Of a DNA stretch of 64,000 nt, positions 1,436 to 24,103 are shown in pieces; position 1 is the first letter of the stretch, and each line of letters begins with the position of its first letter. The notes below the pieces were generated by a model, which worked only from the letters and a program-made list of their open reading frames with translations, did no database searches and had not been told where the DNA came from. The DNA is from Chlorobium sp. (GTDB taxonomy: Bacteria > Bacteroidota > Chlorobiia > Chlorobiales > Chlorobiaceae): the NCBI GenBank assembly GCA_005862225.1, contig SZXV01000002.1, forward strand, positions 62,001 to 126,000. Direction: 5' to 3'. The position numbers were made by a program, and so were the translations under genes.

Positions 1436-4231
1436 ATGCCAGCTAACGACACTCTGAACCAGACCCCCGAGCAAAACGCTCGCGACATCATCGACCGGCA
1501 GCTCACGGCGGCGGGATGGGCGGTTCAGAAAAAGAGCACGATCGACTGGCATATTTCAGCAGGCATAGCGGTGACGCACTACCCGATGAAGGATGGAACG
1601 GAGGCCGACTACGTTTTGTTTGTTGATCGAAAGCCGGTTGGAATCATCGAGGCAAAAAGAGAGGAGGAGGGGCATCACCTCTCCGCAGTAGAAGATCAAT
1701 CGTCGGGATATGCCGCCACCAAGCTGAAGCATCTGAACAACAACCCCTTGCCGTTTGTTTACGAAAGCACCGGCATCTTGACCCACTTTACCGACTACCG
1801 CGACCCCAAGCCACGCTCACGACCGGTGTTTACCTTTCACCGACCGGAAACACTCCGCGAGTGGCTCGGAAAGGAGCAAAGCCTGAGAGCACGAATGCAG
1901 CAGATGGCGGAGCTGCATCCGCAGGGTTTACGGGAGTGCCAGACCATCGCCATCAATAACCTGGAGCAATCGTTCAGTGACTCACGCCCAAGAGCGCTCG
2001 TCCAGATGGCCACCGGTTCAGGCAAAACCTTCACGGCCATCACCTCTATCTACCGCCTGCTGAAACATGCCGATGCCAAACGGGTGCTCTTTCTGGTCGA
2101 TACCCGCAACCTCGGTGAACAGGCAGAGCAGGAGTTCCGGGCCTACACACCCAATGACGACAACCGCAAGTTTACGGAGCTCTACAACGTGCAGCGCCTC
2201 CAGTCGAGCAGCATCGCCAGCGACAGCCAGGTCTGCATCACCACCATCCAGCGGCTCTACTCCATTCTGAAAGGTGAGGAGCTTGACCCTTCGCTGGAGG
2301 AGGAGAACCCGGCGGAAAAAAGCTGGCAGCCAAAAGAGCCGGTACCGGTGGCCTACAATCCAAAAGTTCCGCCGGAATTTTTCGACTTCATCGTCATCGA
2401 CGAGTGCCACCGCTCCATCTATAACCTCTGGCAGCAGGTGCTCGACTACTTCGATGCCTTCCTCATCGGCCTGACGGCAACGCCCGACAAGCGAACCTTC
2501 GGCTTTTTCAACGAAAACATCGTGAGCGAATACAGCCACGAACGGGCCGTGGCCGATGGCGTCAATGTTGGCTACAGCGTCTATCTCATTGAGACCGAGA
2601 TCACAAACAACGGTGCAGAGCTCAAGGCGAAGGAGTTTGTTGACAAGCGCGAAAAGCTCTCACGCCGCAAACGGTGGGAGCAGCTCGAAGAGGACTTCAC
2701 CTATACGCCCACCCAGCTTGATCGTGACGTCGTCAATCCAAGCCAGATTCGCAACGTCATCCGCACCTTTCGCGAGATACTGCCGCTGCTCTTCCCCGGA
2801 CGAACCGAGGTGCCAAAGAGCCTTGTCTTCGCCAAAACCGACAGCCATGCCGAGGATATCATCAGGATTATCCGTGAAGAGTTCAACGAAGGAAATGACT
2901 TCTGCAAAAAGATCACCTGCAAGGCGGACGAAGATCCCAAATCGCTGCTTGCCCGCTTCCGCAACGAGTACAACCCGAGAATCGCCGTCACGGTTGACAT
3001 GATCGCCACCGGCACCGACGTCAAGCCGCTCGAATGCCTGCTCTTCATGCGCGACGTCAAAAGCAGCAACTATTTTGAGCAGATGAAGGGGCGAGGCACA
3101 CGCACCCTTGGTTTTGACGACCTGAAAAAGGTGACCCCGTCAGTCACCTCCGCCAAAACCCACTTTGTCATTGTCGATGCCATTGGTGTCACCAGATCGC
3201 TGAAAACCGACAGCCGTCCCCTTGAGCGCAAGCCCACCGTTTCCCTGAAGGAGCTGCTTGAAGCTGTTACCTTCGGTGCCCAGGAGGAAGATCTCTTCAT
3301 CTCCCTTGCCAGCCGCCTTGCCCGGCTCGACCGGCAGATCACCGAAGAGGAGCGGGCAACGTTTATCGTAAAAACAGGCGGCAAAAGCATTAACCATGTT
3401 GTCAGGGAGCTGCTCGAATCGTGGAATCCCGACACCATAAACCAGAAAGCAGAGGAGATCCTCGGCAGAACGATAGAGGAGGATGCCGATAACCCGTCAG
3501 TCGAAACAATGCAGTTGCGGGAAGAGGTGCAGCAGAGGCTCCTGCACGAAGCACGTTCGACCTTTAACGGGTCACTGAACGAGTTTATCGACAACGTTCG
3601 CCGGGTGCACGAGCAGATTATTGACACCATCAACCTCGACCAGGTCACAAAAAGCGAATGGGCCGATGAAAGCGCCGACAAGGCAACCGAGCTGATCGGA
3701 GAGTTCAAGGCATATCTTGAGAGCCACAAAGATGAAATCATCGCGCTCACCATCTTCTACAACCAGCCCTTTCAGCGCCGCACCGTCACCTACCGCATGA
3801 TCCGTGAGCTGCTCGACCGCCTCAAAGCCGACAAACCAGCCCTTGCCCCGATGCGCATCTGGCACGCCTACGAACAGCTCGAAAAGGTCAATGGCACCAG
3901 CCCGAAAAACGAGCTTATCGCCCTCGTCTCACTCATCCGTCGCGTCACAGGCATTGACCCCGTACTGACCATGTACGACAAAACCGTTGATGCCAATTTC
4001 AAGGATTGGATTTTCAAGCAGCACTCCGGCGCAGGTGAAAAGTTTACCGAAGAGCAGATGAGCTGGCTACGCATGATCAAGGAGCACATTGCCTCCAGTA
4101 TCCATATTGAGCCTGACGACCTCGACCTCACCCCCTTCGACGCGCATGGCGGCCGGGGCAAAATGTGGCAGCTTTTCGGGGATCGGACGGGGGCGATTAT
4201 TGATGAATTAAATGAGGTGCTGACCGCTTGA
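1436..4231 (+). CDS. hsdR: type I restriction enzyme, R (translocase/endonuclease) subunit
   Basis: This 931-residue protein is the DNA-cutting motor subunit of a type I restriction-modification complex; it acts with HsdS and HsdM on unmodified DNA. The N-terminal nuclease core is visible as D58 ... E72-A-K74 (GIIEAK). The SF2 helicase motor follows: Walker A ATGSGKT at 192-198, DECH at 322-325, LTATPDK shortly after, and later FEQMKGRGTRT (motif VI region). The C-terminal region resembles the EcoEI-type R subunit C-terminus. Length is normal for this subgroup and no key residue is missing. It starts the hsd locus, and the antisense toxin-antitoxin pair lies between it and hsdS. Start codon ATG; no strong Shine-Dalgarno. 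Confidence 0.96.
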   Translation: MPANDTLNQTPEQNARDIIDRQLTAAGWAVQKKSTIDWHISAGIAVTHYPMKDGTEADYVLFVDRKPVGIIEAKREEEGHHLSAVEDQSSGYAATKLKHLNNNPLPFVYESTGILTHFTDYRDPKPRSRPVFTFHRPETLREWLGKEQSLRARMQQMAELHPQGLRECQTIAINNLEQSFSDSRPRALVQMATGSGKTFTAITSIYRLLKHADAKRVLFLVDTRNLGEQAEQEFRAYTPNDDNRKFTELYNVQRLQSSSIASDSQVCITTIQRLYSILKGEELDPSLEEENPAEKSWQPKEPVPVAYNPKVPPEFFDFIVIDECHRSIYNLWQQVLDYFDAFLIGLTATPDKRTFGFFNENIVSEYSHERAVADGVNVGYSVYLIETEITNNGAELKAKEFVDKREKLSRRKRWEQLEEDFTYTPTQLDRDVVNPSQIRNVIRTFREILPLLFPGRTEVPKSLVFAKTDSHAEDIIRIIREEFNEGNDFCKKITCKADEDPKSLLARFRNEYNPRIAVTVDMIATGTDVKPLECLLFMRDVKSSNYFEQMKGRGTRTLGFDDLKKVTPSVTSAKTHFVIVDAIGVTRSLKTDSRPLERKPTVSLKELLEAVTFGAQEEDLFISLASRLARLDRQITEEERATFIVKTGGKSINHVVRELLESWNPDTINQKAEEILGRTIEEDADNPSVETMQLREEVQQRLLHEARSTFNGSLNEFIDNVRRVHEQIIDTINLDQVTKSEWADESADKATELIGEFKAYLESHKDEIIALTIFYNQPFQRRTVTYRMIRELLDRLKADKPALAPMRIWHAYEQLEKVNGTSPKNELIALVSLIRRVTGIDPVLTMYDKTVDANFKDWIFKQHSGAGEKFTEEQMSWLRMIKEHIASSIHIEPDDLDLTPFDAHGGRGKMWQLFGDRTGAIIDELNEVLTA

Positions 4232-4239
4232 GTGAAAAG

Positions 4240-4731
4240 TCAGATTTTTTCGTTTGCCAATGCAAGAGCATGGAAATAAAGTGGGTCACCTATTCGGAAT
4301 CCTGCAACCTCTCGTAACGAATCAAGGTGAGGTCGAATTATCTCTATCAAGCACTTTTGCCTGGCCTCCAGCAAAACTCCGATAACTCCAACCGGTTTCA
4401 GCTTTATCCTCATGGCCGCATTTCGGCCTGCTTTTTCATCAAGGAGAATCATATCGGCGTCAAGCTCTGAGGCCAGCACAATACTTTCAGATTCTCCTCT
4501 GTCCAAATTACTTTGTAATGAGCTAACCCATAACTGATTCCTGACCGTATGACGATGAATCCAGTCTGCTGCTGCAACCTCTCTGCTTCCAGGCCATGAC
4601 TTTCCAAAAGCATTCAGTTCATCCCATACTCCATCAGCAATATTTACCTCACCATAGAGCTTATGGAGCAAATCAAACTGACCTATGGCAGCAAGATTGG
4701 TCAAGGGCGATGTATTACTGACCACCTTCAT
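4240..4731 (-). CDS. DUF3368 PIN-like toxin
   Basis: The 163-residue protein opens with VVSNTSPLTNLAAIG, the first PIN-fold strand typical of DUF3368 proteins. GESESIVLASELDADMILLDEK carries the central acidic residues, and the tail VGVIGVLLEA is also typical. PIN-domain toxins are metal-dependent RNases; activity here is inferred. Its start overlaps the stop of the upstream UPF0175 gene by 4 bp (ATGA), the standard coupled toxin-antitoxin arrangement with antitoxin first. The pair sits antisense between hsdR and hsdS. The first acidic position reads Asn, which occurs in many DUF3368 proteins, so I do not call it inactive. Confidence 0.85.
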   Translation of the reverse strand: MKVVSNTSPLTNLAAIGQFDLLHKLYGEVNIADGVWDELNAFGKSWPGSREVAAADWIHRHTVRNQLWVSSLQSNLDRGESESIVLASELDADMILLDEKAGRNAAMRIKLKPVGVIGVLLEARQKCLIEIIRPHLDSLREVAGFRIGDPLYFHALALANEKI

Positions 4732-4988
4732 AGTCGTCGTAACTCCTGAAGCGTTGCAATATCTCTATCCAGATCGGAGAGATCATAATCAGGTGAAATG
4801 CGCCGAAATGCCAGAAGTTGACGGAATTCCCACAATGACATATCGGCAAGTTCATGTGCCTTTCCGATTGAAAGACGCCGTTGCGCATACAAGCTGACAG
4901 CTATCTCTGTTCTCAAGTCATTTATTGTCAGACGTGCCGAATCCAATATGTCTTGAGGAATGTTCAGTATATTCGGATTGCTCAACAT
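4728..4988 (-). CDS. UPF0175 family antitoxin
   Basis: This is a small 86-residue protein with the UPF0175 pattern: an N-terminal segment (LNIPQDILDSARLT), then ELRTEIAVSLYAQRRLSIGKAHELADMSLWEFRQLL, a helix-turn-helix-like region, and a short C-terminal tail that would bind the toxin. Its last bases overlap the ATG of the PIN toxin. UPF0175 proteins are commonly found as antitoxin partners of DUF3368 toxins and probably autoregulate. The promoter must lie within 4989-5241, an AT-rich stretch without another gene until the DUF5131 remnant. Confidence 0.85.
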   Translation of the reverse strand: MLSNPNILNIPQDILDSARLTINDLRTEIAVSLYAQRRLSIGKAHELADMSLWEFRQLLAFRRISPDYDLSDLDRDIATLQELRRL

Positions 4989-5241
4989 GGTTATTGTTTT
5001 TTATTATGAGAGTAGCCAAATTATCTCGCTTGTCAAGAATGACTTTCAGTTTGTGTCAAATTTCTTCTCTCATTCCAGTAACATTTCCCTGACTGAAGTT
5101 AAAAACTATATGGCCTCACGTCACTGATGAACCACTGATTCTGCGTAACTGCCTGAATACTCTAATTTATCATTTTATTTTTGCCTCAAATAAGCCTGTT
5201 GCCGGAAAAATAGCAACGGACATCATTAAAAGAATGTAACA

Positions 5242-5367
5242 ATGGCACAATCTCACATAGAATGGACGGAGATGACATGGAACCCAGTAACGGAGTGTGA
5301 CAAGGTTTCTGACGGGTGCCGGAATTGTTTATGGGTTAATCAAGTGGTAATTCGTAATAGCAAATGA
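5242..5367 (+). pseudogene. DUF5131 (phage Gp37/Gp68-type) N-terminal remnant
   Basis: A 41-codon frame begins [19 protein letters not shown] and continues to SDGCRNC. This matches the conserved N-terminus of DUF5131 proteins (phage Gp37/Gp68-like, usually written IEWTxxTWNPxxGCxxxSxGCxxCYA). The family runs to well over 200 residues, but here it ends after LWVNQVV and a few unrelated residues. The TGA overlaps the ATG of hsdS (ATGA at 5364-5367). The Cys-x6-Cys-x2-Cys cluster survives (C19, C26, C29). It looks like a truncated leftover of a cassette replaced by, or recombined into, the hsd locus. It could still act as a leader that couples translation to hsdS. Confidence 0.75.
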
Positions 5368-6803
5368 GTGTGTATAGATCGGACTGGAAGGTTGAACGAC
5401 TTGGGGATTTTGCCTTGCATGAAAAAGGGACGAAACCAAAACGATCACAAAAAAACGCAGATGATGTTTTTACCTGCCCATACGTGGACATTCAGGCCTT
5501 TGAGAAAGGTATTGTAAAGGAATACACTGACGGACACAAGTGTGTACTGTGTGAAGAGAATGATTTTCTCATGGTTTGGGATGGTTCACGTTCAGGGTAT
5601 GTTGGGAAAGCAATAAAAGGCGCTTTGGGTAGTACGTTGATGAAGATTTCATTTCCGGGAATTGAGACTGATTACGCTTACTATTTTTTGCAATCGAAAT
5701 ACCTTGAAATCAATACGAGAGCAAAAGGAACTGGAACTCCTCATGTTGATCCTGGAATACTATGGAATTATCAATTTGCTATTCCCCCACTCCCCGAACA
5801 GCGAGCCATTGTTGCAAAACTGGAACAGCTTTTCAGTGAACTTGATAACGGGATTGCCTGCCTGAAAAAGGCGCAGGAGCAACTCAAGGTTTATCGTCAA
5901 GCTGTTCTGAAACAAGCCTTTGATGGTGAACTCACCAAAGCATGGCGTGAGCAGCAAACCAGCCTCCCGTCAGCGCAGGAGCTGCTTGAAAATATCAAAG
6001 CCGAGCGGGAGCAAGCTGCAAAACTTCAGGGCAAAAAACTCAAGCCGGTTATTCCATTTACGCAATCTGAGCTTAATGACTTGCCTATACTTCCGAAAGA
6101 ATGGAAATGGGTAAGAATCAGTGATATTGCTCAGAAAATTCAGATTGGCCCATTTGGGAGCCAATTACATTCAGAGGATTACACGGAAAATGGTATCCCT
6201 CTGATAAATCCAAAGCATATTAAAGATCAAAAGCTCTCTCCAAGAGTTAGAATCTCGATAGATAAAGCGAATTCTTTGCCTCAATATTTCCTTGAAGAAA
6301 ATGATATTATTGTTGGTAGAAGAGGCGAAATGGGAAGAACTGCGCCTGTTTTAAAAATACATACCGGGTGGTTCTGTGGAACCGGCAGCCTGTATATCAG
6401 ATTAGGACAATCCTTTATTTCCAAATTATATAGCCTGATTCTGAGTGAAAGACGTATTGTTGATTATCTCGAAAAAAAGAGTCGAGGAACGACAATGGCT
6501 AATCTGAATTCACAGATTATTAATTCATTGCCAATACAGCTCATCTCTGTCCAGGAGCAATCCAAAATCGTGCAGGAAATCGAAACGCGCCTCTCGGTTT
6601 GCGATAACATCGAATCAACCATCCGTGAATCGCTTGAAAAAGCGGAAGCTCTGCGGCAAAGCATCCTGAAAAAAGCTTTTGAGGGCAAACTGCTCAGCGA
6701 GGAGGAGCTTCAGATAACCCGCAACGCCCCGGACTGGGAGCCTGCTGAAAAGCTGCTTGAGCGCATCAAGGCTGAAAAACGAACTGCAAGGAACAAGCAT
6801 TAA
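5364..6803 (+). CDS. hsdS: type I restriction-modification specificity subunit
   Basis: The 479-residue protein determines which DNA sequence the HsdRMS complex recognises. It shows two target-recognition domains (about 1-145 and 245-395), each followed by a conserved coiled-coil spacer. The first spacer starts [20 protein letters not shown] and ends [10 protein letters not shown]; the second starts [16 protein letters not shown] and ends [10 protein letters not shown]. The second recognition domain is visibly AT-richer than the spacers, as expected for a domain exchanged between strains. The ATG overlaps the end of the DUF5131 remnant. hsdM follows 11 bp downstream, so the two are likely co-transcribed. 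The order R-S-M is less common than R-M-S. Confidence 0.95.
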
Positions 6804-6814
6804 CCGTTGTATTT

Positions 6815-8329
6815 ATGACCAACACCCCATCCGCCATTATCTCGAAAGTCTGGTCGTTCTGCCACGTGCTGCGCGACAGTGGCGTGAGCTATGGCGATTA
6901 TCTCGAACAGTTGACCTTTCTCATCTTTCTGAAAATGGCCGACGAGTACAGCAAACCGCCCTACAGCCGCACCATCGACATCCCGCAGGAGTACACCTGG
7001 CCAAAGCTCAAGGAGAAGCGGGGCGCAGAGCTTGAAGTGCTCTACGCCAGCTTGCTCCGCGATCTTGGCAAAAAGCCGGGGATGCTCGGGCAGATATTCC
7101 TGAAAGCGCAGAACAAGATCGCCGATCCTGCCATGCTCTACAAGGTGGTTGACATGATCGACAAGGAGAGCTGGGTGATGATGGGCGCTGATGTCAAGGG
7201 CGAAATTTACGAAGGGCTGCTTGAAAAGAATGCCGAAGATACCAAAAGCGGAGCCGGTCAGTACTTCACCCCCCGCGCCCTGATTGAGGTGATGGTGGAG
7301 TGCATCCGCCCGGAGCCCATGAAAACCATTGTTGACCCGGCATGTGGCACCGGTGGATTTTTCCTCAAAGCGTACGATTTTATCACCAACCGCTACAGCC
7401 TTGACCGGAGCGACAAGGAGTTTCTGAAACATCGCACCTTTGGCGGCAATGAAATTGTGCCCGGCACGCGCAGGCTCTGCCTGATGAACATGTTTCTGCA
7501 CAACATCGGCGAACTCGACGGCATTGCCGCAGTCTCATCCGCTGATGCGCTGCTTGCTGATGGTGGCATCCGGTACGATTACGTGCTCACCAATCCCCCT
7601 TTCGGCAAAAAGAGCAGCATGACCTTCACCAACGATGACGAGGAGCAGGAGAAAGAGAGCCTCGTCTATAACCGGCAGGATTTCTGGGCCATAACCTCCA
7701 ACAAGCAGCTCAACTTTTTGCAGCATATCCACACCATCCTGAAGGTTCACGGCCAGGCCGCCGTGGTGCTTCCCGACAACGTCCTCTTTGAAGGTGGCGC
7801 CGGAGAGCTTGTCCGAAAAAAACTGCTCGAAACTACCGAGCTGCACACCATTCTGAGGCTCCCGACCGGCATCTTTTACGCACAGGGCGTGAAAGCCAAC
7901 GTCCTCTTTTTCGACGTGATGCCCGCCCACAAAGATCCATGGACACGCGACGTGTGGTTCTACGACTACCGCACCAATGTGCACCACACCCTGAAAAAGA
8001 GCCCGCTGAAGGCGTCTGACCTGCAGGAGTTTGTCGATTGCTACAACCCCGAGAACCGCCACAAACGCAAGGAGAGCTTCACACCCGAAACCCCCGAAGG
8101 GCGCTGGCGGAAGTACACCTACGAAGAGATTGTTGCCCGCGACAAAACCAACCTCGACATCTTCTGGCTGAAAGATAAAAGCCTCGCCGATCTTGATAAC
8201 CTTCCCGATCCGGATTTGCTGGCGGGCGAGATCATCGAAAACCTCGAAGCCGGGCTGGCAAGCTTTCAAGAGATTCTGGGGGTGCTGGGCAGGGGAAACA
8301 ATGAACAAATTCACCAAAAAAGCTACTGA
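6815..8329 (+). CDS. hsdM: type I restriction-modification methyltransferase (M) subunit
   Basis: This is an N6-adenine DNA methyltransferase of 504 residues that protects host sites and forms the core of the restriction complex. An N-terminal helical HsdM_N region (about 10-135) precedes the catalytic domain. That domain carries the SAM-binding motif I DPACGTGGF at 174-182 and catalytic motif IV NPPF at 260-263, followed by KQLNFLQHI and VLPDNVLFEGG. A C-terminal helical part (about 450-504) would contact HsdS. It lies 11 bp after hsdS and only 5 bp before the Roco-TIR gene, which implies one transcript. All key residues are present. Confidence 0.96.
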   Translation: MTNTPSAIISKVWSFCHVLRDSGVSYGDYLEQLTFLIFLKMADEYSKPPYSRTIDIPQEYTWPKLKEKRGAELEVLYASLLRDLGKKPGMLGQIFLKAQNKIADPAMLYKVVDMIDKESWVMMGADVKGEIYEGLLEKNAEDTKSGAGQYFTPRALIEVMVECIRPEPMKTIVDPACGTGGFFLKAYDFITNRYSLDRSDKEFLKHRTFGGNEIVPGTRRLCLMNMFLHNIGELDGIAAVSSADALLADGGIRYDYVLTNPPFGKKSSMTFTNDDEEQEKESLVYNRQDFWAITSNKQLNFLQHIHTILKVHGQAAVVLPDNVLFEGGAGELVRKKLLETTELHTILRLPTGIFYAQGVKANVLFFDVMPAHKDPWTRDVWFYDYRTNVHHTLKKSPLKASDLQEFVDCYNPENRHKRKESFTPETPEGRWRKYTYEEIVARDKTNLDIFWLKDKSLADLDNLPDPDLLAGEIIENLEAGLASFQEILGVLGRGNNEQIHQKSY

Positions 8330-8334
8330 TTACC

Positions 8335-11013
8335 ATGAATGATTTTTATTACCTGAGGCAAATTGAAAAGGAACTTGGAATCTATCTGGAGCAACTTGAC
8401 TGGAGCGCATGGAATAGTAAAGGATTTCAAGCAACTACCGGAAATCAGATAACTTGTATTGAATTATATGATTGTAAAATCATTGATCTTGCTCGAATTA
8501 TTGAACCGCTGTCTGGCCTATCTAACCTTTGTACTCTTAATGTTGCCAATAATCAAATAATTGACCTTAGTCCGTTGTCCAGTCTGTTGCAGCTATCCAC
8601 TCTTAACGTTTCGCATAATCAAGTAAGTGATCTCGGTCCGCTATCCGAAATGTCGAATCTTTCCCGTCTGGATGTTAGGGGGAATCAAGTGAGTAATCTC
8701 GGACCCCTGTCCAGACTGTCGAATCTTTCCTATCTTGATGTTTCTGGGAATCAAGTGAGTGATCTCGGTCCGCTGTCCAGACTGTCGAATCTTTCCTATC
8801 TCTATGTTTCGCATAATCTCATAAGTGACCTTGGTACGCTGACTGGGCTGTTGAATCTCTCTCGTCTTGATGTTTGGAATAATCCACTGAAAATTTTGCC
8901 TTTCTGGATTACTGAGTCTGAAATGGACATTCAATGGAGTTCAAGTGGTAAATATGGTTTCATCACGGTTTTAAATAATTCACTGGAAAAGCCGCCTCCT
9001 GAGATTGTCAGACAGGGAATCAATGCGGTCAAGAACTATTTCAGTCAGTTGGAAGAGCAGACAAGTGACTATCTTTTTGAGGCAAAACTACTAATTGTTG
9101 GCGAGCCGGGTGCGGGCAAAACCACTCTTGCCCGAAAACTCGAAAATCATGCTTGTGATTTACCTCATGAGGACGATACCACACGCGGTATTGATGTCAA
9201 TCCAATTTCATTTCCTGTCCACTCTGAAGACTTTCCTTCACTGGATGCCGAAAAACTTAGAGGGAAAGAGTTCAGGATGAATATCTGGGATTTTGGTGGG
9301 CAGGAAATCTATAAGGCTACCCACCGGTTTTTTCTCTCCAGCCGCTCAGTATATGCTTTGGTAATAGACAATCGTAAGGAGAATGAGGATTTAGATTACT
9401 GGCTTCATACTATTGAGATGTTTGGAGGAAACAGCCCGATTATTATCGTGCAGAATGAAAAACAGCAACGGAAACGCGATCTTGATCTTGCCACCCGACG
9501 GCAGCGGTTTGATAATATCCGTAATGTTCTTGCAGTTGATTTTGCTGATGAAAAACCAGATCGACTTTTCCAGCTTGAAACGGTTATTCGGCATCAGATC
9601 AGGGAGTTGCCCCATATCGGAACTTCTGTACCGGCACGCTGGGCAAGTGTCAGAGACGCACTTGAGCAGGAACAGCGCCAGACTATTTCCCAGCAAGAGT
9701 ATCTGGCACTCTGCCAGGAGGAGGGAATAACAAAGAATGAAGACGCATTTTTCCTCAGTAAGTATTTTCATGATATCGGCGTATTCCTTCACTTTCAAGA
9801 TGACAGTCTGCTCCGTAAAACAGTGTTCCTTAAACCGAACTGGGCAACAAGGGCTGTTTATAAACTGCTTGATCACCCCCTACTTGACCAACAACAAGGT
9901 CGCTTCAGCCGTAATGATGCCGCTATTATCTGGCAAGAGGCAGAGTATGATGAGCTTCGCGACGAACTCTTGCGCCTGATGCAGAAGTTTTTCCTGACCT
10001 ACGAGATTGACCAAACCGGTCATTACATTGTTCCGGAAAAACTTCCATCGGTTCAACCAGACTACTCGAAGAATTTGGACAACAGGTTGCAACTTCAATA
10101 CGTCTACAATCTCTTCATGCCAAGAGGCATCATCTCGCAATTCATTGTCAGGATGCACCGTTACATTACAAACAACAAGCTGGTATGGAAACGTGGCTGT
10201 ATTCTCGAACGAGAGGGCGCGGTAGCAGAGGTTATTGAACACTATACCAGACGGCATATTACCATCCACATTTCAGGGAAAAACAAGCGGGACTTTATGA
10301 CCATTATTGCTGACACTCTTGATGATATCAACAATGTCTATGAAAAAATGAAGATTGATAAGATGATTCCCTGCAGCTGCAGGGAATGTGCGGCTGCAGA
10401 AAAGCCCCATTTCTACAAATATGCCGATTTGAAACGCCGAATTGAAAGAGGGAAACAGGAAATTGAATGCGGCAACAGCTTTGATATGGTAAACGTCAGG
10501 CAGTTGATTGATGACGTTTTGAAACAAACGCAAAGACTCACCAATTCAGACAAACATACTCCATCACGTACCTCAAAAGTCTTTGTAAGCTACGCTCGTA
10601 AAGACGCGAAATATCTGAAACGACTACAAAACCATATCCAAGCAGCGAAAAACATAGGCATAGATATTGATGGTTGGGATGACAACAGAATTAACGCCGG
10701 GAAAAATTGGAAACAAGAGATTGAGAATGCCCTTGCCTTCGCAAAGGTGGGAGTGTTGTTGGTCAGCACCGATTTTCTTGCATCTGATTTCATCATGAAC
10801 AACGAGTTGCCTTCACTACTCGAATCTGCAGAAAAAAATGGCACAACTATTTTGTCGCTTATCATCAAACCCTGCCTGTACAACGAAAGCGAATTATCAA
10901 TGTTTCAGGCTATCAATAATCCCGATGAAGCATTTACAGATCTTTCAGAAGCAGAACAAGAGAAGCGCTATCTCAAACTTGTCAAGAGAATAACCGAATT
11001 ATTACAGGAATAA
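8335..11013 (+). CDS. LRR-Roc-COR protein with C-terminal TIR domain (TIR-Roco)
   Basis: The 892-residue protein has, in order: about six 22-residue leucine-rich repeats (62-190; LxxLxVSxNQVSDLGPLSxL); a Roc GTPase (P-loop GEPGAGKTT at 256-264, DFGGQE at 319-324, a weak QNEK G4-like motif near 373); a COR dimerisation region (about 430-660); a linker with CSCxxC plus a further Cys-rich segment that may bind metal; and a TIR domain (about 748-890; FVSYARKD, DGWDDNRI). E824 (in FIMNNEL) is the candidate NADase glutamate. Roco proteins are known from Chlorobium; TIR domains in bacteria are often NAD-degrading immune effectors. It starts 5 bp after hsdM, so co-transcription is likely. The gene is AT-richer than hsdR/hsdM, suggesting separate acquisition. 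A role in phage defence is inference. Confidence 0.9.
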   Translation: MNDFYYLRQIEKELGIYLEQLDWSAWNSKGFQATTGNQITCIELYDCKIIDLARIIEPLSGLSNLCTLNVANNQIIDLSPLSSLLQLSTLNVSHNQVSDLGPLSEMSNLSRLDVRGNQVSNLGPLSRLSNLSYLDVSGNQVSDLGPLSRLSNLSYLYVSHNLISDLGTLTGLLNLSRLDVWNNPLKILPFWITESEMDIQWSSSGKYGFITVLNNSLEKPPPEIVRQGINAVKNYFSQLEEQTSDYLFEAKLLIVGEPGAGKTTLARKLENHACDLPHEDDTTRGIDVNPISFPVHSEDFPSLDAEKLRGKEFRMNIWDFGGQEIYKATHRFFLSSRSVYALVIDNRKENEDLDYWLHTIEMFGGNSPIIIVQNEKQQRKRDLDLATRRQRFDNIRNVLAVDFADEKPDRLFQLETVIRHQIRELPHIGTSVPARWASVRDALEQEQRQTISQQEYLALCQEEGITKNEDAFFLSKYFHDIGVFLHFQDDSLLRKTVFLKPNWATRAVYKLLDHPLLDQQQGRFSRNDAAIIWQEAEYDELRDELLRLMQKFFLTYEIDQTGHYIVPEKLPSVQPDYSKNLDNRLQLQYVYNLFMPRGIISQFIVRMHRYITNNKLVWKRGCILEREGAVAEVIEHYTRRHITIHISGKNKRDFMTIIADTLDDINNVYEKMKIDKMIPCSCRECAAAEKPHFYKYADLKRRIERGKQEIECGNSFDMVNVRQLIDDVLKQTQRLTNSDKHTPSRTSKVFVSYARKDAKYLKRLQNHIQAAKNIGIDIDGWDDNRINAGKNWKQEIENALAFAKVGVLLVSTDFLASDFIMNNELPSLLESAEKNGTTILSLIIKPCLYNESELSMFQAINNPDEAFTDLSEAEQEKRYLKLVKRITELLQE

Positions 11014-11080
11014 CCGCGACAGTGCCGGGATTCCGGAAAATGGTACGATCGGTATTCCTCATCATAGCTTCCCGCTTGAA
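10935..11080 (+). repeat. direct repeat, copy 1 (Roco 3' end and downstream)
   Basis: The last codons of the Roco-TIR gene and about 70 bp beyond recur at 13735-13873. Shared blocks include CTCAAACTTGTCAA, AATTATTACAGGAATAA, AAAATGGTACGATCGG and AGCTTCCCGCTTGAA, with scattered substitutions between the copies. The shared part covers the last codons of a Roco gene and the last codons of a convergent GNAT gene. Confidence 0.85.
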
Positions 11081-11283
11081 AAAAGGACTGCATGGATAGT
11101 TTTAAGCGGCAACAGGAGCGAAAGCGGCAGATCCAGCATCGGAACAGCACCATAGCTTGCGTACCATTCTGCAACTCGCGTATTTTTGGCATCAATCAGA
11201 AGGGCCAGGCCTCCAGCCTGTGCTGCCAGCAGAATAGAACGGTGCCCAGCAGCAATGGCTGCCTTCTTATTTTGTTTAATCAT
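11062..11283 (-). pseudogene. GNAT acetyltransferase, N-terminally truncated remnant
   Basis: The 73-codon frame ends with ALLIDAKNTRVAEWYASYGAVPMLDLPLSLLLPLKTI, the C-terminal half of TacT-like GNAT toxins (AxxxWYxxxGF...LPLxTI). The acetyl-CoA binding motif, which should lie further upstream, is absent. Its ATG overlaps the stop of the ParE-type gene, which suggests that recombination joined the two. GNAT toxins of this type normally follow a DUF1778 antitoxin. A DUF1778 gene without its toxin is found at 13880-14167, so the two are probably leftovers of duplicated TacAT-type units. Confidence 0.75.
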
Positions 11284-11583
11284 AAAGGGTTAGTCTTGAG
11301 TGGTCAAGCAGTTGTGAACCGTGATAGACCGTTAAAAGCTCTACCATATCGCTTTTCACTCTGTACACTATGCGATAGCTCCCAAAAAGAATTTCTCGAA
11401 TGGCAGGATCGTTCAATTCAGGTACTGATCTACCGGAATAAGGGAAATCTGTTAAACGATCAACGGCTGACAGCACATCTATTGCAAATAGACTGGCATA
11501 GTGTTCGGAATCCACAGCAATAAAATTTGCAATCGCTTCCAAATCATCTGCTGCTGCTGAGGAGTCCACCTTATTTCAACCAT
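11276..11583 (-). pseudogene. ParE/RelE-type toxin with a frameshift near the start
   Basis: The protein body DDLEAIANFIAVDSEHYA ... FPYSGRSVPEL ... REILFGSYRIVYRV ... LLTVYHG is a typical ParE-family toxin. The expected start MVEIRWTPQ is encoded from the ATG at 11583, but that frame runs into a CAG-repeat tract (four CAGs) and leaves the toxin frame by one base. The toxin frame itself can only begin at a GTG at 11569, losing the first strand. The ATG overlaps the antitoxin stop region, the normal coupling. The frame break fits loss of one base in the CAG tract. It is probably inactive, matching the disruption of its antitoxin. Confidence 0.75.
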
Positions 11584-11723
11584 TTCGACATTCTTTCTGT
11601 TACTTCCAGGTGAGATAAAGTTTCTCCTGCATCCGCCTGCTGGATTCCCCTCTCAACTTTCGCGATAAAAAGCAGACGCTCCATAGCCTCCTCAAAGGTG
11701 ATATCGGCAGGTAGCGTTTCAAC
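11571..11723 (-). pseudogene. antitoxin gene, 3' part, cut by insertion sequence
   Basis: Minus-strand reading gives LPADITFEEAMERLLFIAKV, then ERGIQQADAGETLSHLEV, then TERMSKWLK and stop. It is close to the intact copy at 15013-15237, which shows what is missing: the first dozen codons, found on the far side of the IS at 13572-13609. The gene would be the antitoxin of the ParE-type toxin just downstream. The final 8 bp (GTTTCAAC, 11716-11723) are the left target-site duplication. Confidence 0.85.
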
Positions 11724-13571
11724 GGAAGTTCCAGCAGTAGCAGAACGAAAAATCCCTATAAGGTTTTATTATAAAATAATTTACGTTTAATGGCGAGTTT
11801 TTTCCTTGTGACTACATCGACATTTTTAGCCTCAATGATTGCTGGTAGTGTAATTCCGGCAGCAGCAAGCAACTCTGCGGCAAGTCCTTTCGACTGAGGA
11901 ATTTTCTGGCAGCTTGCCTCATTGAGAGTGACAATCGTGCTGCGTATGGCACCGAGTTCATCGATTCCTTCCGGCACCGTGCATTCACATTTTTTCCAGA
12001 GTTCTGATAACTGTCGCTCGATTTTGTAGGCAAGCATGACTGCAAAAACATGGCCACGAGTGCTGGCTTCTGTTCGCACATGAACAGGCCTGATTTCAAG
12101 GTGACTTTGTTTGAATGTCCGGAAAGCATGCTCTACTTTTGCCAGATCTTTGTATCGGTCGTGAACTTCTTGAGTCGAAAGAACCTCCTTCTTTACATCG
12201 GTTTTGATCACATAGCAACCGTCAAGAAGGCCAGCTCCTTTCAGTATTTCTTCATTGACCGTTACCTTGAACACCCGTTCCTGATTGGTTAGCTCCAGGA
12301 CATCATTTAATTTGTACTGGTTGATCTTTTTCTGGAGAAACCGTAACGCAACATCATGGTCACGTTTGACAGAACCTGCTAAATAGCTGTTTTTCTCCTC
12401 AACAAAACGCTGAATTTTATTGACCCGTTCTTGGCGATTCTTTGCCATCTCTGCCTTTCGAACAGGATTTCTTCTCAGCACATATCGTACGCCATCTGTT
12501 GAATTTTCAACCTCATACAGTTCTGTGTCGAAAAAATCCATTTGCAATACCTCTGCCTTCAGCAGTGTTCTGATCTCTGGTTTCGACAGTGAGGTGATGT
12601 AATGAAATCCAGCATCGGTCAACTCTTTGGCCTGTGGCGTTTTGATCATGCCCTTGTCGCCAACCATTGTTATCTCCTCAATTCCAAACGTCTTGGCAAC
12701 GGTGCGAATCTGTTCTGCAACCGTTGACTTGTCGCCGGTATTGCCTGCAAAGACACGGACGGCAACCGGATCGCCATCTGCTGTACACAACAAGCCAAGA
12801 ACAATCTGCTTCTTTCCCTTTTTGCCATCCCGGTTGTAACCAAAGGCAGCAAGAACATTCTCCATCCCTTCAAGATATGATGAAGTAACATCATACAGCA
12901 GTAATTCCCGACCAGCACCTGCTGAATTATGCTTGAATAACTGCTTCTCGATGCGCTCCTGATTGTCCGTCAGCCACGCCAGGTTGGCGTACAGATCATC
13001 CTCAGTAAAACTCTCTACTTCAAGCACATCACAGGCGCCATAACTTGCAGCCATTCTGACTGCACCCAAACGAGAACCCTGCCCGATCAATCGCGCAATG
13101 ATCTGCCACAACGCAAGCTTGCCTTGACGGCTACTGCCAAGCGCCTTACTGATACCAAGCCTTTCAGCAAGCGTTTTCAGCGCATACACCACACCAACAC
13201 GAAGGCCGTCATAAAGCTCGACATCCTCGATATTCAGCAGTGCGGACAAATTGTCTTTGTATTTTAGTGCAAGTTTTATGGCGGCGACTTCTGCTGCTGA
13301 ACATTTGGAAATTTTGCCCAGAGTGCGATTTTTGACCTTGCCATCTTCGCGATACGATTCACGAAACAGATACCGATAATAGGTTTTTCCGTTGATGGTG
13401 GTTTTGCTTGTATCGATATACATTGTGACTATATCAAGATTTCTTATACTACTTCATAATATAAGAAAAAACCTTTAATATACAAATAAATTAGTGACTA
13501 CATTTTTCGCGCTTTTTCGCCTTAAAAGTACTGCTTATAACGAGTTAGTCAAAAAAGAGGCTGGAACTTCC
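11724..13571 (-). mobile_element. complete insertion sequence, 1848 bp, IS4/IS1634-like
   Basis: The element is bounded by a perfect 12-bp terminal inverted repeat (GGAAGTTCCAGC at 11724-11735, GCTGGAACTTCC at 13560-13571). It is flanked by an 8-bp direct repeat GTTTCAAC (11716-11723 and 13572-13579). Comparison with the uninterrupted sequence at 15013-15237 confirms the insertion point. It contains one transposase gene on the minus strand. All parts look intact, so it may still move. Family assignment is by transposase resemblance and not certain. Confidence 0.92.
11756..13423 (-). CDS. DDE transposase, IS4/IS1634-like
   Basis: This 555-residue transposase has a DDE catalytic core of the IS4 superfamily: the first Asp in LLYDVTSSYLEG, the second in MVGDKGMI, and the Glu in KVEHAFRTFKQSHLEIRPVHV near the C-terminus. 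The N-terminal part (YYRYLFRESYREDGKVKNRTLG) is the usual short segment before the DNA-binding region. It is intact and fills nearly the whole IS. The start ATG (13423) lies 148 bp inside the right end, so its promoter should lie within 13424-13571. Confidence 0.92.
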   Translation of the reverse strand: MYIDTSKTTINGKTYYRYLFRESYREDGKVKNRTLGKISKCSAAEVAAIKLALKYKDNLSALLNIEDVELYDGLRVGVVYALKTLAERLGISKALGSSRQGKLALWQIIARLIGQGSRLGAVRMAASYGACDVLEVESFTEDDLYANLAWLTDNQERIEKQLFKHNSAGAGRELLLYDVTSSYLEGMENVLAAFGYNRDGKKGKKQIVLGLLCTADGDPVAVRVFAGNTGDKSTVAEQIRTVAKTFGIEEITMVGDKGMIKTPQAKELTDAGFHYITSLSKPEIRTLLKAEVLQMDFFDTELYEVENSTDGVRYVLRRNPVRKAEMAKNRQERVNKIQRFVEEKNSYLAGSVKRDHDVALRFLQKKINQYKLNDVLELTNQERVFKVTVNEEILKGAGLLDGCYVIKTDVKKEVLSTQEVHDRYKDLAKVEHAFRTFKQSHLEIRPVHVRTEASTRGHVFAVMLAYKIERQLSELWKKCECTVPEGIDELGAIRSTIVTLNEASCQKIPQSKGLAAELLAAAGITLPAIIEAKNVDVVTRKKLAIKRKLFYNKTL

Positions 13572-13609
13572 GTTTCAACTGCTATCATAATTTTCTCTTT
13601 TGCCGTCAT
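13572..13609 (-). pseudogene. antitoxin gene, 5' part (other side of the IS)
   Basis: Starting at the ATG at 13609 the minus strand encodes MTAKEKIMIAVET, matching MTAKEKIIQAVET of the intact copy at 15237. It then runs into the IS at the GTTTCAAC duplication. A good ribosome binding site (GGAG) precedes the ATG. Confidence 0.85.
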
Positions 13610-13734
13610 AGCATATCTCCTTTTTTATGTGCTTGAACCATGGGTAAGTGTAAGTTACTTTACCCTGTCGAAGATTCCTTGATTATTGTCTTCCCATGTA
13701 ATTGCGCATTATCATAACAGGTTATGATGAGAGC

Positions 13735-13873
13735 GCTTGCAAGATTCAGCAATGTTCAAGAGCACTCAAACTTGTCAAAAGAATAACCAAATTATTACAG
13801 GAATAAACGCTGTGGCACCGAGATTCCAGAAAATGGTACGATCGGCATTCCTCATCACAGCTTCCCGCTTGAA
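13735..13873 (+). repeat. direct repeat, copy 2: remnant of a second Roco gene 3' end
   Basis: The stretch repeats the end of the Roco-TIR gene, encoding LKLVKRITKLLQE and stop, and its downstream sequence, with about 10-15 percent changes by eye. No other part of a Roco gene is present upstream, so this is a fragment. On the minus strand the last five codons of the convergent GNAT gene (SSGKL and stop) also survive, directly after the DUF1778 stop. Confidence 0.8.
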
Positions 13874-13879
13874 GCAACA

Positions 13880-14167
13880 TTATCGCTTCGGCAAAGCAAA
13901 TGCGGCTGCCATGAGTTTTTCGTTTGGAGCAGGTGGCTCTTCCAGCAAATTTAGAAGTTGCGCATGATCCCTTTCTGTCAAAATTATTCGCTCATTCTGC
14001 TCGATCACCTTTCGAGCCTCAGCAACAACAGTTCTGGTAACGAACTCGGTCAAATCCCTATGCTGCATCGCCGCAGCTCGCACAAGAAGAGACTTCTTAT
14101 CTGAAGCAATCCGCAACGAAAGTCGTGAGTTGCTTTCTACTGGAATTTGTGGCACGGTCGCCTTCAT
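13880..14167 (-). CDS. DUF1778 (TacA-like) antitoxin, toxin partner deleted
   Basis: The frame from the ATG at 14167 gives 95 residues: a ribbon-helix-helix start (SRLSLRIASDKKSLLVRAAAMQHRDLTEFV), then VVAEARKVIEQNERIILTERD, and a C-terminal tail APNEKLMAAA. This is the usual DUF1778 layout. Such antitoxins neutralise a downstream GNAT toxin that acetylates aminoacyl-tRNA. Here only the last five GNAT codons follow. A further upstream start (14272) is possible but would add 35 residues without family resemblance. Two GTACGT direct repeats about 15 bp apart at 14170-14192 could be the operator. Confidence 0.85.
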   Translation of the reverse strand: MKATVPQIPVESNSRLSLRIASDKKSLLVRAAAMQHRDLTEFVTRTVVAEARKVIEQNERIILTERDHAQLLNLLEEPPAPNEKLMAAAFALPKR

Positions 14168-14362
14168 TTGGTACGTATTAAAATTGTACGTCAAGTTACA
14201 GAATTCTTCAACGTGTGCAAAAATTGGCCGGTAGTCCAGCCGAACCTCGTGTTTATTCTTCGTTAAACCCAAGAAAAGATTGTTGCTTGCGAAAAAGCCT
14301 TTTTTTAAATAATTTTTTTATCTTGAAAAAAGAATTCTGATATCGAAGAACGATACTAATCT

Positions 14363-14629
14363 GTGCATAAAAAGCAGCAAAAAATTTTAAATCAGATCTT
14401 TGAAGATCCCGTCCGCTCTGATGTGAAGTGGAGCGATATTGAAAAACTGTTGCTTGGGTTGGGTGCAGAAATTTCAGAAGGAAAAGGTTCAAGGGTGCGG
14501 ATTTTTCTGAATGGGGTACGTGCCGTCTTTCACAGGCCGCATCCTGAAAAAGAGTGCGATAAAGGTGCTCTTAAATCGATGAGACGTTTTTTACAAGAAG
14601 CAGGAATGGACTACCATGCTGAACTATAA
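14363..14629 (+). CDS. hicA: HicA family toxin
   Basis: The 88-residue protein has the HicA double-stranded RNA-binding-like fold signature: KWSDIEKLLLGLGAEISEGKGSRVRI, followed by FHRPHPEKECDKGALKSMRRFLQEAG. HicA toxins are ribosome-independent mRNA interferases. This one belongs to the subgroup with GSR and HRPHP rather than the classical GSH motif. It starts with GTG and overlaps hicB by 14 bp, which implies translational coupling. The order toxin then antitoxin is typical of HicAB. Confidence 0.9.
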   Translation: MHKKQQKILNQIFEDPVRSDVKWSDIEKLLLGLGAEISEGKGSRVRIFLNGVRAVFHRPHPEKECDKGALKSMRRFLQEAGMDYHAEL

Positions 14630-14933
14630 AGGTTATACCGGGCATATTGAATTTGATGATGAAGCGGGACTGTTTCATGGCGAAGTTCTTGACACAAAAG
14701 ATGTTGTCACTTTTCAGGGACGGAGTGTTGATGAAATCGTGCAAGCCTTCAGGGACTCTGTCGATGATTATCTTGACTTTTGTGCAGAGCGGAAAGAAAA
14801 ACCGGATAAGCCATTTTCCGGCAAATTTGTGCTGCGAATGAACCCTGAACTACACCACGCTATTCATCTCAAGGCCGTCAAAGCGGGGAAAAGCCTGAAC
14901 AAATGGGTCAATGATACGCTTCAATCGGCATGA
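14616..14933 (+). CDS. hicB: HicB family antitoxin
   Basis: This 105-residue protein has an N-terminal partially degraded RNase-H-like domain (GYTGHIEFDDEAGLFHGEV, GRSVDEIVQAFRDSVDDYLDFC). A C-terminal ribbon-helix-helix DNA-binding segment follows (LRMNPELHHAIHLKAVKAGKSLNKWVNDTL). This is the standard HicB architecture: it binds HicA and represses the operon. Both genes of the pair look intact, unlike the neighbouring toxin-antitoxin units. Confidence 0.92.
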   Translation: MLNYKGYTGHIEFDDEAGLFHGEVLDTKDVVTFQGRSVDEIVQAFRDSVDDYLDFCAERKEKPDKPFSGKFVLRMNPELHHAIHLKAVKAGKSLNKWVNDTLQSA

Positions 14934-15012
14934 AGGGTTATTGTGCTTGTTTATCATGAGAACAGGGCTTTTCGGACGAGTGTTAATGGCTTACAGTACG
15001 TACTGTTATGCT

Positions 15013-15237
15013 TTACAGGATGCGTTGAACGCGATAGATGGAAAATAGCTTGGCATAGTTCCACCATTTCGACATTCTTTCTTTGACGTCCAGGTGAGAC
15101 AGAGTTTCTCCTGCATCCGCTTGCTGGATTCCTCTCTCAACTTTTGCTATAAAAAGAAGACGCTCCATAGCCTCCTCAAATGTGGTATCGGCAGGAAGCG
15201 TTTCAACTGCTTGAATAATTTTCTCTTTTGCCGTCAT
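15013..15237 (-). CDS. orphan antitoxin, intact paralogue of the IS-split gene
   Basis: This gene starts MTAKEKIIQAVETLPADTTF and matches the split antitoxin at 11571-13609 almost residue for residue up to ERMSKW. After that the reading frame runs on into unrelated sequence (NYAKLFSIYRVQRIL), and no ParE-type toxin follows. The downstream toxin has therefore been deleted, leaving an antitoxin with a replaced C-terminus. The family has no name I can give with certainty; its role as ParE partner is inferred from the other copy. Confidence 0.65.
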   Translation of the reverse strand: MTAKEKIIQAVETLPADTTFEEAMERLLFIAKVERGIQQADAGETLSHLDVKERMSKWWNYAKLFSIYRVQRIL

Positions 15238-15674: not shown

Positions 15675-15685
15675 CTCTTTTCCGC

Positions 15686-16227: not shown

Positions 16228-16231
16228 GCCA

Positions 16232-19755: not shown

Positions 19756-20376
19756 ATGATTACTGACTACGAATGGCCACTGTGGATTGATGCGAACAGG
19801 ATCTGCGGTATTGACGAAGCGGGCAGGGGACCCCTTGCCGGGCCGGTTGTGGCGGCAGCGGTTGTTTTTCCTCGCTGTTTCAGACCTGATGGCACGGTTC
19901 TTGAACTACTGAATGATTCCAAGCAACTCACTGCGGGCGAGAGGAATATGCTGGCTCCAGCGATCAAAAAAGCAGCGGTATGCTGGGCAATCGCGGAGGT
20001 GGAGCACGACATCATTGACAACATCAACATTCTGCAGGCAACCATGCTCGCCATGAATGACGCCGTCATGTCATTACCAACAATTCCTGAACTGCTGCTT
20101 GTTGATGGAAACAGGTTCAAAACAGAACTCTCTATTCCTTTTCAAACCATTGTCAAGGGCGACTCAAAGGTCTTTTCGATTGCGGCCGCGTCAGTGCTGG
20201 CCAAAACGCACCGGGACGAGTTGATGGTGGCGTATGGCGCACAATACCCGCAATACGGCTTTGAACGCCATGCCGGCTATGCGACAAAAGCACACATTGA
20301 GGCGATCAGGAAATATGGCCGCTGTCCGATTCACCGTCTGAGCTTCAAGTTGCGGCAACTGGGCGAAAAACCATGA
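19756..20376 (+). CDS. rnhB: ribonuclease HII
   Basis: This 206-residue enzyme cleaves RNA in RNA-DNA hybrids, including single ribonucleotides in DNA. The active-site strand [14 protein letters not shown] (about 19-32) and the later [13 protein letters not shown] and [18 protein letters not shown] blocks are all typical. Length matches the family. Its stop overlaps the start of yraN by 4 bp (ATGA), so the two are coupled. Confidence 0.97.
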
Positions 20377-20765
20377 AGGTTATCTACGATCCGCATCTGC
20401 TTGGACCAACAGGGGAGCAGATTGCGGCCGACTATCTGGTAACGGAAGAATACCGCATCATTGAGCGCAATTACCGGTTTCATCGCAATGAGATCGACAT
20501 TATTGCCCTGTACCAGCAGACGCTCTGCTTCGTCGAAGTTAAAACACGTGTCTCGTCGGCTCATGGCCACCCTGCCGAGGCGGTAACGCTTCAGAAGCAG
20601 AGAGAAATTATCAAGGCCGCCCGCGCTTATCTTGCCTTATCCGGTCAGAATGATGCTGATTGCCGTTTTGATGTTCTGGCTATTCTGATACATGGTATGG
20701 AGGGAAACCGTGTCACCTCCTTTAGTGTCGAGCATTTCAAGGATGCCTTCTGGGCAGGCTTCTGA
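20373..20765 (+). CDS. yraN: UPF0102 / YraN family nuclease-like protein
   Basis: The 130-residue protein has the YraN pattern: [42 protein letters not shown] (the D...ExK nuclease-like core) and [17 protein letters not shown]. The biological role is unsettled. Coupling with rnhB is a common arrangement in bacteria. Confidence 0.95.
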
Positions 20766-20788
20766 ATGACAGAACACAAGCATAATAA

Positions 20789-24103
<3,315 letters not shown>

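What the first reader, a model, noticed from the sequence alone, without database searches (positions are those of the whole stretch)
8335..11013. TIR-domain Roco protein encoded directly after a type I restriction system
The protein joins LRRs, a Roc GTPase switch, COR, a Cys cluster and a TIR domain with a candidate NADase Glu (E824). Seen: it begins 5 bp after hsdM, so it is probably in the restriction operon. Known: Roco proteins occur in Chlorobium, TIR effectors deplete NAD in several bacterial immune systems, and STAND-like immune proteins sense via repeats. Inference: the LRRs sense a phage product, GTP-driven dimer change activates the TIR, and the cell loses NAD. This would be a two-layer defence backing up restriction, which I do not know as a described system.
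Basis: partly seen in the sequence, partly recalled or inferred. Interest (0 to 1): 0.78.

Follow-up and report, generated by a model that had tools for sequence, protein, structure and literature searches.

The report
Bacterial LRRK2 cousin with TIR effector
A green sulfur bacterium carries, right behind its DNA-restriction genes, a protein built like the Parkinson's protein LRRK2 but ending in a TIR domain that probably destroys NAD, so it looks like a phage sensor that switches the cell off; proteins of this kind were predicted before, and its repeated place next to restriction systems in this bacterial family is the new part.

Summary
Window 8335-11013 (+) encodes an 892-aa LRR-Roc-COR-TIR protein starting 5 bp after hsdM, in an hsdR-[UPF0175/DUF3368 pair]-hsdS-hsdM locus. 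It is a true Roco. Its TIR resembles NADase TIRs, and E824, aligned with AbTir's catalytic Glu, is invariant in 21 of 21 aligned TIR domains.

Kaur et al. 2021 already proposed LRR-Roc-COR proteins with exchangeable C-terminal effectors, TIR included, as counter-invader systems; PrrC in EcoprrI is a known suicide layer inside an hsd operon.

New here: of 10 Chlorobiaceae TIR-Rocos with a visible upstream side, 6 sit directly behind restriction or defence genes of four kinds (type I, type III, type ISP, SIR2-HerA); of 7 TIR-less Rocos, none. The locus is a variable hotspot, and three relatives keep a deletion scar of the gene. Against a fixed partnership: 7 of 13 relatives' hsdM loci show neither gene nor scar, hsdM and Roco differ strongly in divergence, partners change, and 0 of 27 TIR-Rocos of a global search (26 outside the family) have such neighbours by the nine queries used. 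Best read as NLR-like, NAD-depleting defence cargo that rides with restriction modules. Enzyme activity and phage defence are untested.

The parts
8335..11013 (+). TIR-Roco gene, 892 aa, LRR-Roc-COR-TIR
8500..8889 (+). leucine-rich repeats, about residues 56-185 (proposed sensor; less conserved than Roc and COR)
   Evidence: Pfam; model and fold match to the CtRoco LRR (5il7, Z 28.1, rmsd 1.5, 206 aligned); per-domain identity
9085..9459 (+). Roc GTPase, residues 251-375; P-loop GEPGAGKT, switch DFGGQ
9631..10515 (+). COR-A and COR-B, residues 433-727, with the CxCxxC cluster
10579..10917 (+). TIR_2 domain, residues 749-861; candidate catalytic Glu E824 at 10804-10806
6815..8329 (+). hsdM, type I methyltransferase, 504 aa (C-terminus about 10 residues longer than in most close relatives)
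5364..6803 (+). hsdS, specificity subunit
1436..4231 (+). hsdR, restriction subunit
4240..4988 (-). UPF0175 + DUF3368 pair (PADLOC candidate PDC-S70) between hsdR and hsdS
11276..11569 (-). ParE-like toxin gene after the Roco; in G017, G109 and G030 DNA matching the window from 11275-11280 on is fused to the Roco's first codons
11756..13423 (-). IS1634-family transposase in the same hotspot
13880..14933 (.). TacA1-like antitoxin (-) and HicA/HicB pair (+), further hotspot cargo
19756..22798 (+). chromosomal edge of the hotspot: genes recognised as rnhB, yraN, gyrB (names by eye, no family search); the other edge, an rng-like gene, is just left of the window
   Evidence: synteny

Best explanation
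An intracellular, NLR-like defence receptor. The LRRs hold the protein off and sense an infection cue; the cue changes the nucleotide state of Roc and the Roc-COR arrangement; this lets the TIR domains pair and cleave NAD, so the infected cell stops before phage is released. It travels as cargo of defence hotspots and in Chlorobiaceae often sits as the last gene behind a restriction module, where it can be co-transcribed and act as a backup when restriction fails. Shown here: domain make-up, conserved catalytic-site candidates, gene order, hotspot, deletion scars, R-M adjacency in two separate Roco groups. Inferred: sensing by LRR, GTP switching (from published CtRoco work), NADase activity, abortive infection, co-transcription. 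CtRoco is a dimer without nucleotide and an open monomer with GTP (PMC11052575, passages), so which nucleotide state lets the TIRs pair cannot be told from sequence.
For: Architecture. TIR: of 4 PDB sequence hits at E 0.01 the best is AbTir (5.2e-5), with E824 aligned to its E208 by my count; E208A AbTir is NADase-inactive (PMC11374754 passages). Model close to RPPT, SPARTA, RUN1, AbTir and SARM1 TIRs. E824 and D783 invariant, S752 at 90% or more, in 21 rows. LRR less conserved than Roc and COR. Setting: hotspot between rng-like and rnhB-like genes, under 1 kb in 22 and over 3 kb in 12 of 39 genomes that have both on one contig; contents seen include R-M, toxin-antitoxin and PADLOC candidate genes. 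TIR-Rocos directly behind R-M/defence genes in 6 of 10 Chlorobiaceae cases, TIR-less Rocos 0 of 7. Deletion scars. The class was already proposed as counter-invader.
Against: No functional data for a TIR-Roco came up in the ten paper searches. The Trp of the WxxxE motif is not at the matching place (E824 is preceded by SDFIMNN). The fold list also holds non-enzymatic TIRs such as MyD88 (Z 15.1). Outside Chlorobiaceae the nine R-M/defence queries found nothing near TIR-Rocos. Four of 10 Chlorobiaceae TIR-Rocos have no R-M hit in the stretch held, two of them behind metK/ahcY-like genes. R-M genes are common in these genomes.
Confidence: 0.62

Rival explanations
1. PrrC-like guard: the Roco binds the type I enzyme and is released or activated when a phage anti-restriction protein disables that enzyme.
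For: Adjacent, same strand, 5 bp from hsdM; same order in G000, G009, G011 and scars in G017, G109, G030; PrrC precedent.
Against: A tight group of related TIR-Rocos sits behind a type III modification gene, a type ISP enzyme and SIR2-HerA, so a specific HsdM contact is unlikely for them; PrrC is described as invariably linked to type Ic R-M whereas this family mostly is not; hsdM dS 0.31 against TIR-Roco 2.47 for window versus G009 speaks against a shared history of the two alleles.
Confidence: 0.12
2. The TIR makes a nucleotide signal (a cyclic ADPR isomer) for another effector, as in Thoeris, rather than depleting NAD itself.
For: Best PADLOC match, over the TIR region, is ThsB (9.2e-16); plant and bacterial TIRs often make cyclic ADPR isomers (abstract of PMC10022894 in the listing).
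Against: The genes that follow are a ParE-like toxin, an IS1634 transposase and other toxin-antitoxin genes, none a recognised ThsA; a ThsA elsewhere in the genome was not sought; several single-protein TIR systems deplete NAD directly (recalled).
Confidence: 0.15
3. Not defence: a signalling Roco whose TIR is only a scaffold; its place near R-M genes comes from hotspot clustering in R-M-rich Chlorobium genomes.
For: Own genome has 13 N6_Mtase and 7 N6_N4_Mtase matches, fragments included; 0 of 27 TIR-Rocos of the global search beside R-M by nine queries; TIR-less Rocos, CtRoco included, lie in loci without R-M hits.
Against: Catalytic-site candidates conserved; TIR+ against TIR- contrast inside one family (6/10 versus 0/7, one-sided p 0.017; 4/8 versus 0/7, p 0.051 when the hsdM trio is counted once); sporadic occurrence, 10 of 98 genomes of the order.
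Confidence: 0.15

Closest known systems
Prokaryotic AP-GTPase (Roc)-COR conflict systems, Kaur et al. 2021 eLife (PMC8195603; section 15 read, other parts by word search)
   Same: N-terminal fast-evolving LRRs, AP-GTPase plus COR, exchangeable C-terminal effector with TIR listed; predicted counter-invader role.
   Different: Section 15 does not mention restriction-modification linkage, nor do the passages shown for 'restriction'. Its figures and source data were not seen.
CtRoco of Chlorobaculum tepidum (6hlu, 8r4b, 5il7)
   Same: Closest solved relative by sequence, E 2.2e-140; same LRR-Roc-COR.
   Different: No TIR; its gene (L172) lies between an acetate-kinase-like and biosynthetic-looking genes, names by eye.
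PrrC in EcoprrI (type IC R-M)
   Same: Suicide effector in an hsd locus as a second layer (passage of PMC3874165).
   Different: Anticodon nuclease inside the operon, tied to one R-M type and set off through a phage anti-restriction peptide; here an NLR-like TIR protein at the 3' end with changing partners.
RloC and other restriction-linked ORFs
   Same: Defence genes sometimes, not always, in R-M loci: 8 of 73 RloC linked to type I or III R-M (passage of PMC2610378).
   Different: tRNA-cutting enzyme with ABC ATPase motifs (abstract).
NAD-cleaving TIR systems (SPARTA, Thoeris, AbTir, plant TIR-NLR, SARM1)
   Same: TIR fold and catalytic Glu position.
   Different: The switch here is a Ras-like GTPase with COR; the switches of the others are recalled: Argonaute, SLOG/Thoeris, NB-ARC, ARM/SAM.

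Membership tests
Roco proteins | Roc GTPase with P-loop followed directly by COR | tested here: met
   Pfam Roc, COR-A, COR-B; GEPGAGKT and DFGGQ; fold matches to MbRoco2 Z 33.1, CtRoco Z 29.0 and LRRK2
Roco proteins | GTP binding and hydrolysis, dimer-monomer switch | not testable with these tools
   needs protein
AP-GTPase conflict systems (Kaur et al. 2021) | LRR + AP-GTPase + COR + known conflict effector at the C-terminus | tested here: met
   definition
AP-GTPase conflict systems (Kaur et al. 2021) | fast-evolving LRRs | tested here: met
   LRR 42% and 51% against Roc 72-73% and COR 70-73% in G009 and G096; two homologues, no rate test
AP-GTPase conflict systems (Kaur et al. 2021) | anti-phage function | not testable with these tools
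   none in print found in the ten searches
NADase TIR domains | TIR fold | tested here: met
   model pLDDT 89.4; 7xoz Z 16.4, rmsd 2.0, 133 aligned; AbTir 7uxu Z 14.1, rmsd 2.4, 128 aligned
NADase TIR domains | catalytic Glu in helix C | tested here: met
   E824 on AbTir E208 (numbering by my count), invariant in 21 of 21
NADase TIR domains | WxxxE motif Trp | tested here: not met
   position -4 is not Trp in the window; in the table of PMC11374754 W204A inhibits AbTir but the matching W240 change has no effect in TcpC
NADase TIR domains | NAD cleavage | not testable with these tools
   needs assay; pocket geometry was not measured
STAND NTPases (NLR proper) | NACHT or NB-ARC type ATPase | tested here: not met
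   the switch is Roc; no STAND family in the Pfam result. It may work like an NLR, it is not one
PrrC-type R-M guards | constant linkage to one R-M type | tested here: not met
PrrC-type R-M guards | physical silencing by the R-M enzyme | not testable with these tools
   needs co-purification
Type I R-M locus (neighbours) | hsdR, hsdM, hsdS | tested here: met

The most novel reading that the evidence does not exclude
In Chlorobiaceae the TIR-Roco is a general backup layer for restriction: whatever the R-M type, the Roco is kept as the last gene of the module and fires when restriction is inhibited or overrun, its LRRs reading an anti-restriction protein or a product of restriction. It would be an LRRK2-type switch wired to restriction.
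Probability: 0.22. Interest if true: 0.78.

Novelty: new member of a known kind. Interest (0 to 1): 0.5.

Why it matters
CtRoco is a much-used bacterial model of LRRK2, but I saw no cellular role for a bacterial Roco in the listings and passages of my searches. A Roco fused to a TIR with an intact candidate active site has an easy readout (NAD loss), so it could turn 'what does the Roc-COR switch do, and in which nucleotide state is it on' into a bench experiment. If the R-M link is functional it would add, after PrrC and RloC, another suicide layer carried by restriction loci, this time with an immune-receptor design.

Tried and rejected
Relocation of an intact cassette: at first G009 seemed to carry hsdS-hsdM-Roco at another place; reading its contig further showed the same rng-rnhB hotspot, so the three intact cases are one locus, not three transfers.

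Fixed hsd-Roco operon: rejected as a general statement by 7 of 13 hsdM loci without Roco or scar (in G097 only 340 bp after hsdM are held) and by L055/G096, where a Roco 65% identical in aligned codons sits in the same hotspot without hsd genes. In G027 DNA after hsdM matches window 11062-11255, just past the Roco, so it too fits a loss, but without a scar.

Wider enrichment: nine R-M/SIR2/HerA/YhcG queries by phmmer on 80 loci of the global search found none near 27 TIR+ Rocos and hits in 2 loci (3 Rocos) of 55 TIR- Rocos. A phylum search at E 1e-100 had matches, Rocos with or without TIR, in 10 of 392 genomes, all of the window's family.

Rows left out: from 11 Chlorobiaceae TIR-Rocos G078 (contig end) was dropped for the neighbour count; from the TIR-less set G101 (contig start) and the G069:C74 fragment (C-terminus not in the ORF) were dropped. 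The neighbours of the TIR-less Rocos were judged by eye and by the nine queries, not by Pfam. G011's Roco lies in two pieces near two contig ends with the frame interrupted there; it may be a broken gene or an assembly fault and was used only in pieces. For the TIR alignment the 20 strongest TIR domains of the global set (E up to 1e-30) plus the window were used.

Plasmid and phage collections: no record covers 80% of the query; the plasmid Rocos L050, L051 and L052 have no TIR match. Fold search of the whole model did not test the TIR, so it was modelled alone.

Full report
WHAT IS THERE. The ORF at 8335-11013 (+) codes for 892 aa with LRRs, Roc, COR-A, COR-B and TIR_2 over Pfam's cut-offs. 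The nearest solved relative by sequence is CtRoco (6hlu, E 2.2e-140, best stretch 56-734; residues 1-177 align too). A model from a 25-row alignment (pLDDT 84.6, pTM 0.59; residues 732-746 under 50) matches MbRoco2 Roc-COR (Z 33.1, rmsd 2.7, 313 aligned), CtRoco Roc-COR (Z 29.0, rmsd 4.1, 458 aligned) and the CtRoco LRR (Z 28.1, rmsd 1.5, 206 aligned). The TIR alone (pLDDT 89.4) matches RPPT-TIR (Z 16.4, rmsd 2.0, 133 aligned), SPARTA TIR-APAZ (15.5), RUN1 (15.4), AbTir (14.1) and SARM1 (13.7); MyD88 (15.1) and other non-enzymatic TIRs are in the same list. By sequence the PDB hits at E 0.01 are AbTir (5.2e-5 and 1.1e-4) and a plant TIR NADase (two chains). E824 falls on AbTir E208 by my count; E208A removes that NADase activity (passages of PMC11374754). 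In 21 TIR domains E824 and D783 are invariant and S752 is at 90% or more. The Trp of WxxxE is missing.

THE LOCUS. hsdR, a minus-strand UPF0175/DUF3368 pair, hsdS, hsdM, Roco, then a ParE-like toxin, an IS1634 transposase, TacA1-like, HicA and HicB genes. Of 65 genomes of the genus, 39 have the flanking rng-like and rnhB-like genes on one contig, always on opposite strands: under 1 kb apart in 22, 1-3 kb in 5, over 3 kb in 12, at most 33 kb. So the finding lies in an integration hotspot. Contents seen in relatives include hsd genes, ABC-3C (DUF2326/CTD10) and PADLOC candidates M41, M68, S37 and S70, and also genes without a defence look.

IS IT PART OF THE RESTRICTION MODULE? A search of 98 genomes of the order found 14 HsdM at least 90% identical to the window's, itself counted; in 13 the 3' side is visible (not in G092). 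Three (G000, G009, G011) carry a TIR-Roco there. Three (G109, G017, G030) carry a spacer and about the first eleven codons of a Roco, in G030 with its frame broken, then at once DNA that matches the window from 11275-11280 on, past the Roco's end: a deletion scar, with one shared junction, so perhaps one event. Seven have neither (G099, G027, G101, G097, G102, G094, G029). In G096 (contig of L055) a related Roco sits in the hotspot without hsd genes; 74 bp around its start are 78% identical to the window's. The hsd genes and the Roco do not seem to share a history: window against G009, dS is 0.31 for hsdM and 0.48 for hsdR, 1.0-2.1 for six flanking chromosomal genes, 1.1 for hsdS (50% identical protein) and 2.5 (near saturation) for the Roco. 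Recent exchange of hsdM and hsdR between species would explain this. The 5-bp gap is special to this genome among the loci compared.

OTHER TIR-ROCOS. At E 1e-18 the order holds 11 TIR-Rocos in 10 of 98 genomes. For 10 the upstream side is visible. Six have an R-M or defence gene directly upstream on the same strand, 5 to 82 bp away: hsdM three times; a type III modification gene (G026); a type ISP enzyme with its endonuclease, helicase, methylase, coupler and specificity domains (G104); HerA of a SIR2-HerA pair, with a type III Res and YhcG nuclease before it (G032). Four do not: both of G096, and G007 and G061 behind metK/ahcY-like genes. Of TIR-less Rocos of the family, 0 of 7 have a hit to the nine queries anywhere in the 7-18 kb held. 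One-sided Fisher p is 0.017, or 0.051 if the hsdM trio counts once; Chlorobium genomes are rich in methyltransferases (13 N6_Mtase matches in G000), and the queries came from the TIR+ loci, so this is suggestive only. In a Roc-COR tree of 25 chosen rows the window's group is sister to Anammoxibacter and Chloroflexi TIR-Rocos, while G026, G032, G104 and one G096 protein form another, tight group in which the three with R-M or defence neighbours each have a different one (which warns of long branches). So R-M linkage probably arose at least twice, and partners change quickly. In the global set, 0 of 26 TIR+ Rocos outside Chlorobiaceae have such neighbours by the nine queries.

HOW IT MAY WORK. 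Inference from the parts: LRR sensing (the LRR is less conserved than Roc and COR, and the G096 protein, 1,079 aa, is longer at its repeat end), GTP-controlled Roc-COR rearrangement as in CtRoco (passages of PMC11052575), TIR pairing, NAD cleavage, arrest. In CtRoco GTP makes a monomer, whereas TIR NADases act as pairs or larger assemblies (recalled), so either the nucleotide-free or GDP dimer is the active form, or opening frees the TIRs to assemble otherwise. This is the most useful open point.

KNOWN OR NEW. Section 15 of PMC8195603 (read) describes AP-GTPase-COR proteins with fast-evolving LRRs and at least 24 C-terminal domains, TIR among them, as counter-invader systems. PrrC is a suicide layer embedded in a type IC operon (passage of PMC3874165); RloC is linked to type I or III R-M in 8 of 73 (passage of PMC2610378). 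I found no paper on Roco-R-M linkage or on a tested TIR-Roco in ten searches of open papers (of most hits only the listing was seen); the library lacks most subscription journals, and the figures and source data of PMC8195603 were not seen. Verdict: a new member of a known kind for which I found no experiment, with a repeated R-M placement in one bacterial family that I did not find described.

Noticed in passing
L052 (NZ_CP101696.1, 182874-196688), Roco at 5794-8532: An LRR-Roc-COR protein without detectable TIR lies between the TniB/HTH genes and tniQ-csy genes of a type I-F CRISPR-associated transposon on a Photobacterium plasmid: independent hint that Rocos travel as defence cargo.
   Followed up: partly
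G000:C4 about 515000-522600 (L006, L007): Two nearby genes of the same genome code for TIR - WD40 propeller - Roc proteins of over 1,000 aa (cut at the locus end): another TIR-Roc architecture with the TIR at the N-terminus.
   Followed up: partly
L042, 10811-12775 (G027): A 654-aa protein in which Pfam sees no Roc or COR ends in a TIR 56% identical to the window's: the TIR module seems to be exchanged between sensors.
   Followed up: partly
window about 1436-20400 and the matching hotspot in relatives: The rng-rnhB hotspot, with two exchange sites inside the hsd module itself (between hsdR and hsdS, and after hsdM) and HsdM 97-99% identical to species whose flanking genes differ much more.
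   Followed up: yes
L172, 6733-10041 (G080): CtRoco's own locus: no TIR, no R-M hit, next to an acetate-kinase-like gene; a related Roco start in G069:C74 (L176) has the same kind of neighbour.
   Followed up: partly
L043 and L169 (G007, G061): TIR-Rocos behind metK/ahcY-like genes in two genera at the same place, so a more stable position.
   Followed up: no
L180 (NZ_CP117771.1 178668-189957): On a conjugative Nostoc plasmid a Roco-matching protein annotated as SAV_2336-related lies after a MoxR ATPase and near CHAT and NACHT genes, like the MoxR-vWA conflict systems.
   Followed up: no
L055, 7441-9417: Next to the G096 TIR-Roco lies a protein with an eCIS core domain.
   Followed up: no
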